Under the pieces are notes generated by a model that made no database searches, was not told the origin of the DNA, and saw only the letters and a list, made by a program, of their open reading frames with translations. DNA of 64,000 nt from Imbricaverruca yamaguchii (taxonomy: Eukaryota; Arthropoda; Thecostraca; Neoverrucidae), in NCBI GenBank assembly GCA_034440575.1, contig JAOTOL010001335.1, positions 124,001 to 188,000 on the forward strand, read 5' to 3'. Positions 53,328 through 63,290 of this stretch are shown here, in pieces. A program made the translations under genes and the position numbers. Each line of letters starts with the position of its first letter. Position 1 is the stretch's first letter.

Positions 53328-53419
53328 ATGTCCGGTCTGAGTCGGCTGGTGGGCGCCGCCGCGCGCTACTCGGCCCTCCGCCAGACGACGCAGACACTCC
53401 ACCTGCAGCCGGCCACCAG
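53328..53419 (+). CDS. MICU1: MICU1 coding exon 1 (mitochondrial targeting sequence)
   Basis: Start ATG 53328-53330 in good context (ACCATG), with an in-frame TAG immediately upstream (53322-53324). Encodes MSGLSRLVGAAARYSA then LRQTTQTLHLQPAT: Arg-containing, no acidic residues, as expected of a mitochondrial presequence. MICU1 is the EF-hand gatekeeper of the mitochondrial calcium uniporter in the intermembrane space. The gene is recognised by exons 3 and 4. The donor CCACCAG|GTACGG leaves phase 2. Exon 1 identity rests on position, presequence character and phase fit with exon 2. The first exon is not conserved enough to identify alone. Confidence 0.75.
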
Positions 53420-54620
53420 GTACGGGTCACCGCTGCTCAGTTGGTACAGCTAACCTGCTGACAGCCACCAGGTACGGGAGAGCTAACCTGCTGACAGCCA
53501 CCAGGTACGGGAGAGCTAACCTGCTGACAGCCACCAGGTACGGTGAGCCCAGGTACGGGAGAGCTAACCTGCTGACAGCCACCAGGTACGGGAGAGCTAA
53601 CCTGCTGACAGCCACCAGGTACGGGAGAGCTAACCTGCTGACAGCCACCAGGTACGGGAGAGCTAACCTGCTGACAGCCACCAGGTACGGGAGAGCTAAC
53701 CTGCTGACAGCCACCAGGTACGGGAGCTAACCTGCTGACAGCCACCAGGTACGGGAGGCTAACCTGCTGACAGCCACCAGGTACGGGAGGTCACCGCTGC
53801 AGGTAGCTAACCTGCTGACAGCCACCAGGTAGGGACAGCTAACCTGCTGACAGACCTGTGACAGCCACCCCCCAGGTACGGGAGAGCTAACCTGCTGACA
53901 GCCACCAGGTAGGGCTAACCTGCTGACAGCCACCAGGTACGGGAGAGCTAACCTGCTGACAGCCACCAGGTACGGGAGAGCTAACCTGCTGACAGCCACC
54001 AGGTACGGGAGAGCTAACCTGCTGACAGCCACCAGGTACGGGAGAGCTAACCTGCTGACAGCCACCAGGTACGGGAGAGCTAACCTGCTGACAGCCACCA
54101 GGTACGGGAGAGCTAACCTGCTGACAGCCACCAGGTACGGGAGAGCTAACCTGCAGCCGGCCACCAGGTACGGGAGAGCTAACCTGCTGACAGCCACCAG
54201 GTACGGGAGAGCTAACCTGCTGACAGCCACCAGGTAAGGGCCGCCGCTGCTCAGTTGGTACAGCTAACCTGCTGACAGCCACCAGGTAAGGGCCGCCGCT
54301 GCTCAGTTGGTACAGCTAACCTGCTGACAGCCACCAGGTAAGGGCCGCCGCTGTTCAGTTGGTACAGCTAACCTGCTGACAGCCACCAGGTAAGGGCCGC
54401 CGCTGCTCAGTTGGTACAGCTAACCTGCTGACAGCCACCAGGTAAGGGCCGCCGCTGTTCAGTTGGTACAGCTAACCTGCTGACAGCCACCAGGTAAGGG
54501 CCGCCGCTGCTCAGTTGGTACAGCTAACCTGCTGACAGCCACCAGGTAAGGGCCGCCGCTGCTCAGTTGGTACAGCTAACCTGCTGACAGCCACCAGGTA
54601 AGGGCCGCCGCTGCTCAGTT
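53420..54620. repeat. Intron 1 minisatellite built from the exon 1 donor
   Basis: Two unit forms in tandem. The 52-bp form is CCACCAGGTAAGGGCCGCCG + CTGCTCAGTTGGTACAGC + TAACCTGCTGACAG (about eight copies, 54230-54620). The 33-bp form lacks 19 bp of the middle (CCACCAGGTACGGGAGAG + CTAACCTGCTGACAG; about twenty copies, 53455-54230). The first unit begins in exon 1 itself, so every unit repeats the exon end and donor. CTAAC and CTGAC resemble branch-point motifs. CTCAGTTGGTACAGC is the A-box region of the SINE that follows. Confidence 0.95.
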
Positions 54621-54790
54621 GGTACAGCTTCGGACTCTTCGTCGCGAGATTGTCGACTCGAGTCTCACAGCCGGCGGCATTGCCGGTGCACCCGCGACCA
54701 ATCGGCGTGAGAGGTTGACGACGCTATATGACCTAACAGTGGAATACGTCGTGAAATAACCCAAAGTTCCCAAAGAGACACCGGGTGTGT
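54612..54790 (+). mobile_element. SINE, family alpha, at the end of the intron 1 array
   Basis: CTGCTCAGTTGGTACAGC (A box), ACTCGAGTCTCAC (B box), then CCGCGACCAATCGGCGTGAG and GACGCTATATGACCTAACAG, GTCGTGAAATAACCC. The body matches the minus-strand copy at 11.74-11.9 kb. Its A-box segment is what is repeated in the 52-bp units. Confidence 0.8.
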
Positions 54791-55764
54791 GTTGTGCAGG
54801 GTAGAGAGAACAGCACTGTCCAACGTCGCTGTCGTCGATAACAGTGTCCCTCCCACGAAGTTATTCCGACCCGTTTCTTTTTTTAGAAGTTGAATATGCC
54901 GAGGATTATCGTGGTGTGGCTTTTGTTCGTTTAATCAATTTTAGTCATGTTTTTAGTCTTGTGTGGATTTCGTCATACAAACTTGGCATATTCAATGTCA
55001 GTCGGGGGATAGTGCCAAGGCTACATTGCCAACAATGTCACTATGAAAGTGTGTTCAAGTAGCGCAGGTAGTTGGTCTAGCTTTGGGGCGCTGTGACTTG
55101 CCTTGATCATCTGCGGCCCTCCAAGCAGAAGATGAGGGGTGGAAAATCCAGGGAAATTATAAATGCCTCAGGGCAGTTTGAACGTTGTTGCGGCAGATGT
55201 GGAGGATGTCGCCCGGGATTTGTCTCTGAAAGCGGCGGCAGGATTGACTCAGGGCAGTTTGAAACACTTCTAAACCACAGTGTACCCCAAAGGATGGAGT
55301 GTTTGGTTGCTGTGATGCCAATTTGGCGGTGTCGTCCCGAATTTGTGTGAAGTTGGTGATGAAAGTCACGAGTGAAGGCTGATCCCAGGATTGTGTGGCA
55401 TGTCGAGATGTCAGCTAACTGGCGTCACCAGAGGCTCTCTTGACAGGGTAGTTTGGGTGCCATATATCCCACTGGGATTAACGCTCCCTAAGCCCCCAAT
55501 AACCACCATCGAGAGGGTGGTTGAGGTGTCAAAATGTGCTCAGGAATACTCAGGAATACATCACACCACCAATTTGTTGCTCAATATCAAATGTCATGGT
55601 GTTCTGACTCAGTGGGGCCACAAGGGCTTGTGATCCATCCGGGTTGAATCTGACAAGGGAAAGTAGCATGAGGCTGGACAAAAAGACAAAAGAAAACAGA
55701 GTAAAGTATAAAAATACCCCTTAAGCCGATTGGATTTTTCGCCGTTGCTCACTGCTAGATGGAC
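54791..55764. other. Intron 1 interior, no identifiable gene
   Basis: Contains CAGGGCAGTTTGA and ATTTGTCTCTGA / AATTTGTGTGA direct repeats (about 55165-55350, two units of ~90 bp) and nothing else I can identify. Confidence 0.5.
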
Positions 55765-55925
55765 GAGTAGTCTGTGAGAAAGGTGCCCATCTGCCAACGG
55801 AAAGGCGGTGGGCTCGGTTCCCACCCGTCGCCACCTTTAACCCGCGCGCCACCAATCGGCGGGTGAGACTAGGGATGCAATGCCACCCGAAACTGTCGAC
55901 GCGTCGTAAAACCAACAGCCGCACG
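55765..55925 (+). mobile_element. SINE, family alpha, before the exon 2 array
   Basis: B-box region GGGCTCGGTTCCCACC, body CGCCACCAATCGGCGGGTGA and CGACGCGTCGTAAAACCAAC. The end of the SINE runs into the first unit of the 42-bp array (CGCCTCCGCCAGGTACGG at about 55930). Confidence 0.75.
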
Positions 55926-61600: not shown

Positions 61601-61629
61601 GATCTGGCGGACAGATCCGGACGGCGGGG

Positions 61630-61775
61630 TTAAGATGAGCGGCCGGCATCCCGGAGGTGCGGGGTTCACTCCCCCGCAGCGGCCGCCCTTTCTGCCCGGG
61701 CGGGAGGCAGGCGACGACAGCCGAGAGCGGGTCGGGAAGAATCCTCCAGTCGACGACGGGAGCCGGGGTTCTGAC
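61630..61775 (+). mobile_element. SINE-like sequence, family gamma
   Basis: GGAGGTGCGGGGTTCACTCC resembles a B box, followed by CCCTTTCTGCCCGGGCGGGA and GGCAGGCGACGAC. The body recurs at 63385-63530. Confidence 0.6.
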
Positions 61776-62329
61776 GGTGTCAGCGCAGGGCTGAAGTAAT
61801 GGTGTTTCGTCTGGCGTGGGATGTAGAAGCGAGCACGGTAGGATGTTGAAATCTGCCATTGAATTAGTGTCATTTAAAATGCTTCTAGACTCAAATTTGA
61901 GCCAATGGCGTGCTTATGACAATACCTTCAGCATTGGTTTTTGATATTCAAAGTCTAGGGAGAGCTATGCTCCGGATACTGAGAAAATACGTATGCAATA
62001 CACTGGTATTGTATGCTCTATCACATTACAGGTAATCCCTTTATCTGAATTTGTGTTGCGAAATGTTCGTGCATCACCATCCGTCATCCTACCGGGTCTA
62101 TCAGTTATCCATCCGAGCCATTCATGTACGAAACTAATAAGTGAATCATGAGCATGTCACTTGTGCACGAGATGCTGTTAGAAAGGAGGCGTGAAGACTT
62201 CATAAGCATGCATCAAGAGGCAGGATGCCGTACTTCTTGGAGAATGATGTCGATTGAGTGTTCAGAAAGTGGCATATTCCACCCTCTTTCACGAATAATT
62301 TTATAACTGCGCCGTTGCGTCACCTTCAG
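61776..62329. other. Intron 3, remaining part
   Basis: No identifiable feature. It ends in TGCGTCACCTTCAG, the acceptor of exon 4. Confidence 0.6.
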
Positions 62330-62504
62330 ATTATCGAGTACGAGAACCGGATCCGTCAGTACTCGACGCCGGACAAGATCTTCCGCTACTTCGCCACCCT
62401 GCGCGTGGTGAGCGAGCTGCCGGACGGCGGCACCAGCTCGGAGGTCTACATGACCCCGCTCGACTTCCTGCGCTCCATCACACCTGGCGTCAAACAGCCA
62501 GAGG
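62330..62504 (+). CDS. MICU1: MICU1 coding exon 4 (start of the conserved core)
   Basis: Encodes [18 protein letters not shown] then [28 protein letters not shown] and [12 protein letters not shown]: the highly conserved N-terminal lobe of MICU1 that precedes the EF-hands. [19 protein letters not shown] is diagnostic of MICU1 over MICU2/3. The acceptor CACCTTCAG|ATT is phase 0 and the donor AGG|GTAGGT is phase 1. A few residues (PDGGTSS) lengthen the loop relative to vertebrates. The EF-hands and C-terminus must lie downstream of the window. Confidence 0.95.
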
Positions 62505-63290
62505 GTAGGTCAGACACGCGGTCAAGCAGCCAGACGGTAGGTCAGACACGGGTCAGACAGACGGAGGGTAGGTCTGGCACGGGGACAGACAGAAGGAGGG
62601 TAGGTCAGGTCCCAGGGTCAGACAGACGGAGGGTAGGTCAGGCACGGGTCAGACAGACGGAGGGTAGGTCTGGCACGGGTCAGACAGACGGAGGGTAGGT
62701 CTGGCACGGGGTCAGACAGACGGAGGGTAGGTCAGGTCCCAGGGTCAGACAGACGGAGGGTAGGTCAGACACGGGTCAGAGAGACGGAGGGTAGGTCTGG
62801 CTGGGTGGGCGCTACATAACCAGTAGCAGTTGATGCGCCCCTAAGCCCAAATAATAAATAGGTCTGGCTGGGGGTTAAACAGCCAGAGGGTAGGTCAGGT
62901 CAGGGGTCAAACAGCCGGAGAGTAGGTCAGATACTGGGTCATACAGACGGAGGGTAGGTCAGGCTGGGGTTAAATAGCCAGAGGGTAGGTCAGGTCAGGG
63001 GTCAGATAGGTGGAGGGTGTCAGGTCAGGGGTCAGACAGACGGAGGATAGGTCAGGTCCCGGGGTCAGACAGACTGAGGGTAGGTTTGGCACTGGGTCAA
63101 GCAGATGGAGGGTAGGTCAACCATGGGGTGAGACAGCTAGAAGGTACGTCAGTCTGTGCGTCAGAATCAGAGGGTAGGTCAGACCCTGGGTCAGACAGCA
63201 GGAGGGTAGGCTAGGCCCGGGGTCAAAAGCCGGAGGGTGGGTCAGGCCCAGGGTCAAACAGCCGGAGGGTATGTCAGGTCAGATGACAGA
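62505..63290. repeat. Intron 4 minisatellite built from the exon 4 donor
   Basis: About 25 imperfect units of ~31 bp: CAGACAGACGGAGGGTAGGT + CAGGCACGGGGT and variants. The first unit begins in exon 4 (AACAGCCAGAGGGTAGGTCA), so the exon end plus donor GAGG|GTAGGT is what is repeated. Units become more diverged downstream. Confidence 0.93.
62806..62858 (+). mobile_element. SINE 3'-end fragment with 14-bp target duplication
   Basis: TGGGCGCTACATAACC...CCCCTAAGCCCAAATAATAAA is flanked by TAGGTCTGGCTGGG at 62792-62805 and 62859-62872. The same SINE end occurs at 30893-30945. A short 5'-truncated retroposon inserted within a minisatellite unit. Confidence 0.85.

What the first reader, a model, noticed from the sequence alone, without database searches (positions are those of the whole stretch)
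53328..63290. MICU1 splice junctions have been turned into minisatellites
Four of eight visible exon edges in the MICU1 5' part abut a tandem array. In three of them the unit contains the splice junction itself: the exon 1 donor (CCACCAG|GTACGG, ~28 units), the exon 2 acceptor (CCTCCGCCAG|GTAYGG, ~34 units) and the exon 4 donor (GAGG|GTAGGT, ~25 units). The fourth array ends 7 bases before the start codon. The arrays are unrelated to one another, so the same process seems to have acted separately at each junction. I know of no described mechanism that targets exon-intron borders this way.
Basis: partly seen in the sequence, partly recalled or inferred. Interest (0 to 1): 0.88.

Follow-up and report, generated by a model that had tools for sequence, protein, structure and literature searches.

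The report
Minisatellites grown from exon-intron borders
In what looks like a barnacle gene for a mitochondrial calcium regulator, several exon-intron borders have been copied over and over into long tandem repeats that carry dozens of spare splice sites; such border repeats are known from lancelets under the name mirages.

Summary
The gene is MICU1; its best protein match is from the barnacle Amphibalanus amphitrite. Three arrays contain a splice junction and copy the adjacent exon end: exon 1 (best other unit 19/19), exon 2 (30/30) and exon 4 (17/19). A fourth array ends 5 nt before the start codon; its resemblance to the start of exon 1 is only suggestive. The excess of array ends near exon edges is real but modest: 4 of 8 edges within 30 nt, P 0.00075; for the 7 splice edges alone 3, P about 0.008-0.016, and nothing significant within 10 nt. 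Arrays carry 132 donor-like motifs in 4801 bp against 26 in 5244 bp of other intron. The claim that nothing like this is described is wrong: junction-spanning minisatellites, 'mirages', are published for lancelet Adh3, globin, troponin C and PGBD5 genes, and human repeats at exon-intron boundaries too. Best reading: junction-spanning tandem duplications, invisible to the protein if splicing uses the outermost copy, expanded like other minisatellites. New here: a crustacean host and three clear cases in one gene. No transcript or genome-wide test was possible.

The parts
51488..53322 (+). Array A0: 21-bp units (about 89), core TCAG|GTGTG, ends 5 nt before the MICU1 start codon; possibly a 5' UTR splice-site array (not tested)
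   Evidence: TRF; 80 exact CAGGTGT cores; 18/22 columns match between a unit and 53329-53350 at the start of the coding sequence, P 0.003-0.01 uncorrected
53328..53419 (+). MICU1 exon 1 coding part, donor CCACCAG|GTACGG
   Evidence: open joined frame; aligned with Amphibalanus MICU1-like protein
53401..54629 (+). Array A1: exon 1 donor array, mostly 33-bp spacing in the middle, 52-bp spacing at both ends; 32 CCAG|GTA cores including the authentic donor
   Evidence: last 19 nt of exon 1 repeated 19/19 at 54149-54167
55930..57384 (+). Array A2: exon 2 acceptor array, 42-bp units, 35 CCAG|GTAY cores; the last one is the exon 2 acceptor
   Evidence: first 30 nt of exon 2 repeated 30/30
57355..57510 (+). 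MICU1 exon 2
58162..58779 (+). Array A3 in intron 2: 58/61-bp units; a 12/12 copy of the exon 2 donor CACT|GTGAGTGG lies at 58162-58173 just before it
   Evidence: P 0.003 against the local region but 0.069 against the whole intron
59514..59543 (+). Candidate 30-nt in-frame exon (or alternative first exon from ATG 59515) whose donor CCAG|GTGACC begins array A4; conjectural
   Evidence: in frame with exons 2 and 3; no transcript evidence
59540..60014 (+). Array A4 in intron 2: 25-bp units CCAG|GTGACCTTGGGGCAGGCTGGT
   Evidence: TRF; 17 exact cores
60940..61108 (+). MICU1 exon 3, donor AAG|GCGAGT (GC-AG intron); no long array at either edge
62330..62504 (+). MICU1 exon 4, ends in the codons for KQPE(G), donor GAGG|GTAGGT
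62486..63278 (+). Array A5: exon 4 donor array, mostly 31-33-bp units, about 25 copies, 22 recognisable donors (authentic counted)
   Evidence: last 19 nt of exon 4 repeated 17/19 at 62871-62889
63534..63808 (+). Array A6 in intron 4: 26-bp units with GC-type donor-like CAG|GCAAGT
   Evidence: TRF; 10 exact cores

Best explanation
These are 'mirage'-type minisatellites. At the exon 1 donor, the exon 2 acceptor and the exon 4 donor a short segment spanning the border (19-30 nt of exon plus some intron) was tandemly duplicated and then expanded by slippage or unequal exchange into tens of copies. Shown: the exon end is part of the array. Argued from conservation: in the exon 4 case the copying ran from exon to array, because the exon codes for residues conserved across animals while the units have drifted. 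Inferred: the expansions persist because splicing uses the outermost copy (first donor, last acceptor), so extra copies fall into the intron and the protein is unchanged. In intron 1 the units have the form AG|GT, so a wrongly kept set of whole units is itself bounded by GT and AG, and a partial splice rebuilds a donor of the same kind; this could make splicing errors self-correcting (inferred, not tested).
For: Exon-only sequence recurs in the adjacent array. MICU1 identity and splice phases. K, Q and P near the end of exon 4 are invariant in the 9-sequence alignment, followed by E in 7 and D in 2, while the 21 other A5 donor units are 0.68-0.89 identical to the exon end. Only the first of 32 exon 1 donors gives an open frame; the other 31 run into the same stop at codon 42, so the outermost donor must be the productive one. 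Neighbouring units are more alike than random pairs in A1 (P 0.0005) and A2 (P 0.02), as expected of local expansion; A5 P 0.10. Precedent: lancelet mirages, reported not to disturb splicing.
Against: No transcripts were available, so the junctions rest on frame, homology and splice consensus. The exon 1-exon 2 region is weakly conserved, so that acceptor is less certain than the others; nine of the 35 acceptor copies are out of frame and 26 in frame. Edge tests were designed after seeing the data and weaken when only splice edges are counted. The splice core is 0.005-0.023 above the rest of the unit in six of eight array parts, 0.10 above in A5 and below in A6, and its window ranks first only in A5, so little suggests that the spare sites are used or selected. 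Eight A1 units carry a better-scoring donor than the authentic one (CAG|GTAAGG 11.4 bits against 7.9), which is awkward for the view that the first donor wins.
Confidence: 0.85

Rival explanations
1. Coincidence in a repeat-rich gene: minisatellites fill about half of the introns here, so some must touch exon edges; those that overlap an exon end then contain exon sequence by definition.
For: Eight larger TRF arrays lie in about 13 kb, 4801 of 10045 intronic positions scored; A3, A4 and A6 are not at recognised exon edges; with splice edges only and TRF starts, one of seven within 20 nt is reached in 6178 of 20,000 placements and none lies within 10 nt.
Against: Within 30 nt, 3 of 7 splice edges is reached in 156-326 of 20,000 placements and 4 of 8 edges in 15. 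AGGT occurs in the sense strand of 6 of 8 units (shuffle P 0.0003) and CAGGT in 5 of 8; two of the arrays away from recognised exon edges or upstream of them (A-1, A4) and A0 carry it too.
Confidence: 0.25
2. AG|GT (5' splice-site-like) sequences themselves seed minisatellites in this lineage, for instance through U1 or spliceosome contact, R-loops or a recombination preference; the exon borders are only the commonest such sequences.
For: Best 5' splice-site score per unit summed over 8 arrays is 53.7 bits sense against -1.9 antisense, reached by 0 of 3000 shuffles; sense beats antisense in 8 of 8. Motif density 27.5 per kb in arrays against 5.0 per kb in other intron. The acceptor array A2 is as donor-like as the donor arrays.
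Against: The score matrix is recalled, the shuffles are mononucleotide, and 3 of the 8 arrays are border copies, at least two of which must contain a donor. A3 and A6 have no AGGT, and singly A-1, A3, A4, A5 and A6 have shuffle P above 0.05. In the rest of the window 5 of 7 control units also score higher on the plus strand.
Confidence: 0.2
3. Intron 1 is itself a young intron made by tandem duplication of an AGGT-bearing segment, and arrays A1 and A2 are its two diverged ends.
For: Donor and acceptor of intron 1 agree at 13 of 20 positions, CCAGGTACGG in common, against 3-10 in the 11 other donor-acceptor pairs; 52-bp A1 unit and A2 unit align (P 0.013 uncorrected). Model published for lancelet globins and a tandem-duplication case in potato RdRp.
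Against: P 0.013 does not survive correction for the 36 pairs; part of the match is splice consensus; intron presence in relatives could not be checked.
Confidence: 0.2
4. The 42-bp array is translated: exon 2 starts far upstream and the protein carries 14-aa repeats.
For: 26 of 35 acceptor copies (authentic included) give an open in-frame protein.
Against: Minor alleles by codon position are 20/10/21 in 32 units, not a clear coding pattern; the Amphibalanus protein has no such insert; long open frames cross the array in all six frames, so openness says little.
Confidence: 0.07

Closest known systems
'Mirages' of amphioxus (Adh3, globins BflGb6 and BflGb9, troponin C, PGBD5); PMC3087553 and PMC3902484, passages read
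   Same: Tandem repeats spanning exon-intron boundaries, at donors and acceptors, with AG/GT signals in many units; unit lengths of 10-72 bp (Adh3) and 150-160 bp (globins) reported there
   Different: Host looks like a barnacle; three clear cases in one gene, with about 32, 35 and 25 copies; BflGb6 has 3 and 6 units in its two haplotypes and BflGb9 one duplicate
Human internal tandem repeats at exon-intron boundaries in segmental duplications; PMC2812944, passages read
   Same: Minisatellites of about 30 bp at exon-intron boundaries that can alter splicing
   Different: On average four copies, in recent paralogues, with transcripts supporting new introns
Intron gain by tandem duplication; potato RdRp, PMC4974935, abstract read
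   Same: Duplicated stretch crosses an intron-exon boundary and supplies splice sites
   Different: One duplication and a new intron detected there; here many copies and no proof of a gain
Recursive splice sites of Drosophila; PMC6110457, passages read
   Same: AG/GT with juxtaposed 3' and 5' splice motifs
   Different: There one or more conserved sites in very long introns, nearly all segments over 1 kb; here dozens of sites mostly 33-52 bp apart in a 3.9-kb intron, use unknown

Membership tests
Mirage minisatellites | Tandem repeat spans an exon-intron boundary and includes exon sequence | tested here: met
   19/19, 30/30 and 17/19 exon-end matches in A1, A2, A5; junctions predicted, not seen in transcripts
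Mirage minisatellites | Many units carry AG/GT splice signals | tested here: met
   32, 35 and 22 recognisable sites, authentic ones counted
Mirage minisatellites | mRNA is spliced normally despite the array | not testable with these tools
   no transcripts; the open frame needs the outermost donor of exon 1
Mirage minisatellites | Array length is unstable between alleles or cells | not testable with these tools
   one sequence only; neighbouring units alike in A1 and A2, not clearly in A5
Intron gain by AGGT tandem duplication | Direct repeat shared by the two ends of the intron | tested here: inconclusive
   13/20 for intron 1 against 3-10 for 11 other pairs
Intron gain by AGGT tandem duplication | Intron absent in relatives | not testable with these tools
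   no related genome could be searched
Recursive splice sites | Juxtaposed 3' and 5' splice motifs around AG/GT | tested here: met
   66 of the 67 AGGTA sites of intron 1 lie in A1 (32) and A2 (34); pyrimidine fraction before AG 0.77 in A2, only 0.53 in A1
Recursive splice sites | Sites used in stepwise removal, conserved above background | tested here: inconclusive
   use not testable; core window ranks first only in A5
Introners (mobile introns; recalled) | Same sequence family at many introns | tested here: inconclusive
   within this gene, arrays at different junctions share little beyond the AGGT core; genome not searched

The most novel reading that the evidence does not exclude
In this lineage AG|GT splice-site sequences are themselves the seeds of minisatellites. 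Arrays away from recognised splice junctions (A-1, A0, A4, perhaps A3 and A6) then mark unrecognised or former exon borders, such as a 30-nt in-frame exon at 59514-59543. In intron 1 some 66 tandem AG|GTA sites work as a dense ladder of recursive splice points that corrects splicing errors, so that AG|GT-phased arrays are the ones tolerated.
Probability: 0.12. Interest if true: 0.85.

Novelty: new member of a known kind. Interest (0 to 1): 0.5.

Why it matters
If mirages occur in a crustacean as well as in lancelets, border minisatellites are either an old animal-wide process or have arisen repeatedly. A gene with three clear cases and dozens of equal or better decoy donors is a natural test of how the spliceosome picks the right site, and of how tandem duplication feeds intron gain and changes of gene structure.

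Tried and rejected
Selection on the spare splice sites: per-position conservation by wrap-around alignment of eight array parts ranks the core window 7 of 21 (A0), 18 of 33 and 43 of 52 (A1), 26 of 42 (A2), 29 of 60 (A3), 8 of 25 (A4), 1 of 31 (A5) and 22 of 26 (A6); not supported except perhaps in A5. Translation of the 42-bp array: no clear codon-position pattern (20/10/21). A common repeat family behind all arrays: of 36 unit pairs, five had P 0.05 or less, clear only for A-1/A0 and the two halves of A1. Homology of the other exon edges with their introns: exon 3 acceptor P 0.228 against the whole intron and 0.02 against the A4 region; exon 3 donor and exon 4 acceptor gave only 8- and 11-base matches, not tested by shuffles. 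Taxon from the LINE element: the best hits, up to 97% identical, are unnamed metagenome proteins (only the 7971 candidates sharing most words were scored, 120 of 7240 hits listed), so the barnacle assignment rests on MICU1 alone. Three small TRF rows (59413-59456, 60108-60138, 61024-61076, the last inside exon 3) were left out of the counts and put back. Literature: ten searches; I saw their listings, often capped (for example 10 of 377 and 10 of 1421), and found no crustacean case there; the library is open-access only. A river-prawn lectin paper with 30/33-bp tandem repeats (PMC7536079) was seen in listings only and not opened.
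Full report
What the gene is. Four exons on the plus strand join into an open frame of 197 aa; the lengths after exons 1, 2 and 3 leave remainders 2, 2 and 0. The protein matches solved MICU1 (calcium uptake protein 1) over residues 95-197 at E 8e-25. A protein search places it closest to a partial MICU1-like protein of the barnacle Amphibalanus amphitrite, 57% identical over the whole query; the next nine hits are insects (120 of 341 hits listed). The alignment supports the exon 2-3 and 3-4 joins directly (query FNWPLAKEIWN against [33 protein letters not shown]) and the end of exon 4 (KQPEG, followed by LGLDQY in relatives), while the exon 1-2 join lies in a poorly conserved stretch. 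The window therefore probably comes from a cirripede or a near relative; that is an inference from one gene. Taxonomy of Amphibalanus.

The arrays. TRF lists, beside three small rows, eight larger arrays between 50.9 and 63.9 kb, several with alternative periods (my grouping). Three contain a junction. A1 starts inside exon 1: of 32 units, counting exon 1 itself, the 19-nt exon end is matched at identity 1.0 in two (the other at 54149), 0.84 in 28, 0.73 and 0.59 in one each; 52-bp spacing stands at both ends and mostly 33-bp spacing in between. A2 ends inside exon 2: its first 30 nt recur exactly, and the exonic part of the 35 units, exon 2 counted, is 0.90-1.00 identical apart from one short unit at 0.70. 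A5 starts inside exon 4: best unit 17/19, the 21 other donor units 0.68-0.89 identical to the exon end. A0 ends 5 nt before the start codon and matches the first coding bases at 18 of 22 columns, P 0.003-0.01 before correction; since one off-diagonal cell of the 4 x 8 exon-array table also reached P 0.02, I treat this as suggestive.

Chance. In 20,000 random placements of the eight arrays, four or more of eight exon edges (the start codon counted) came within 30 nt of an array end in 15 (P 0.00075); for 20 nt, three edges, P 0.0047; for 10 nt, one edge, P 0.18. I had set the start of A1 at 53401, because the exon tail belongs to its first unit. A rerun with the seven splice edges alone gave 3 of 7 within 30 nt, reached in 156 of 20,000, or 183 with TRF's own starts, or 326 with the three small rows added; within 20 nt with TRF's starts only 1 of 7, reached in 6178; within 10 nt none. 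So the edge excess is modest and depends on the distance chosen. What does not depend on it is that exon-end sequence is part of the units.

Direction and age. K, Q and P near the end of exon 4 are invariant in the nine aligned sequences, from arthropods, a scallop and a sturgeon, so the exon is the likely source and the array the copy. Neighbouring units resemble each other more than random pairs in A1 and A2, not clearly in A5, the usual mark of local expansion.

Consequences for splicing. With the recalled matrix, sense sites at least as good as the authentic donor number 67 in intron 1, 5 in intron 2, 4 in intron 3 and 16 in the part of intron 4 in the window, against 0, 3, 3 and 0 on the other strand. 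The eight distal units of A1 score 11.4 bits against 7.9 for the authentic donor. Of the 32 donors of A1 only the first gives an open protein; the other 31 reach a stop at codon 42. Of the 35 acceptors of A2, 26 give an open in-frame protein, with 42 nt per extra unit or one 30-nt unit; nine do not. Of 22 donors of A5, three, the authentic one included, keep frame without a stop. So most A1 and A5 errors would be harmful, and the outermost copy must usually win. Because the A1 and A2 units break at AG|GT, any retained set of whole units starts with GT and ends with AG and could be removed in a second step; fly recursive sites have the same AG/GT form. Intron 1 has 67 AGGTA sites, 32 in A1, 34 in A2 and one outside. 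Self-correction is a proposal, and single units of 33-52 nt may be too short to be spliced out alone.

A wider pattern. Arrays not at known splice junctions also tend to carry AG|GT on the sense strand: six of eight units have AGGT (shuffle P 0.0003), five CAGGT, and the summed best donor score is far above mononucleotide shuffles on the sense strand (0 of 3000). A3 and A6 have no AGGT, and taken singly A-1, A3, A4, A5 and A6 do not reach P 0.05. A4 begins at CCAG|GTGACC after a 30-nt stretch that would be an in-frame exon between exons 2 and 3 or, from its ATG, an alternative first exon. A3 is preceded by a 12-nt copy of the exon 2 donor (P 0.069 against the whole intron). These are leads.

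Comparison with the literature. [quoted passage not shown] The lancelet PGBD5 paper (one passage) adds PGBD5 and troponin C. The human study (passages) found repeats at exon-intron boundaries with a mean unit of 30 bp. In the listings of my ten searches of the open-access library I saw no crustacean or other arthropod case; several listings were capped and subscription papers are not covered. A Balanus improvisus genome paper, searched for repeats and introns (12 of 13 passages), reports at least 40% repeats and has no occurrence of 'minisatellite'.

Verdict. A real and unusual set of structures of a known kind, apparently in a new lineage.

Noticed in passing
window 1811-3505 and 4694-6312: Long inverted repeat, longest arms 96-99% complementary, containing minisatellite arrays (CAGGTCATAACCTCCA-type units), nested between inverted copies of flanking sequence at 45-1633 and 8258-10152; looks like a foldback element or palindromic duplication.
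   Followed up: partly
window 45555-46212 and 47244-48166: Second inverted-repeat region with 12-bp tandem units near its outer ends.
   Followed up: no
window 7370-10402, 13194-14441, 34928-37980: Non-LTR retrotransposon frames: one of 1010 codons, others shorter or in pieces; the first is 97% identical over residues 350-850 to an unnamed metagenome protein.
   Followed up: partly
window 61108-61109: The exon 3 donor appears to be a GC site (AAG|GCGAGT), supported by the protein join GFRDRK-IIEYENR.
   Followed up: partly
window 60205-60280, minus strand: tRNA-Val(CAC)-like sequence inside MICU1 intron 2, perhaps the head of a SINE.
   Followed up: no
window 23477-24799: Zinc-finger-like reading frame, recognised by eye in the translation; its finger repeats probably explain the TRF hit at 24125-24902.
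   Followed up: no
window 26482-26863: Uniform 38-bp array (95% matches) with core AACAG|GTCAAT, not near an exon that I recognised.
   Followed up: no
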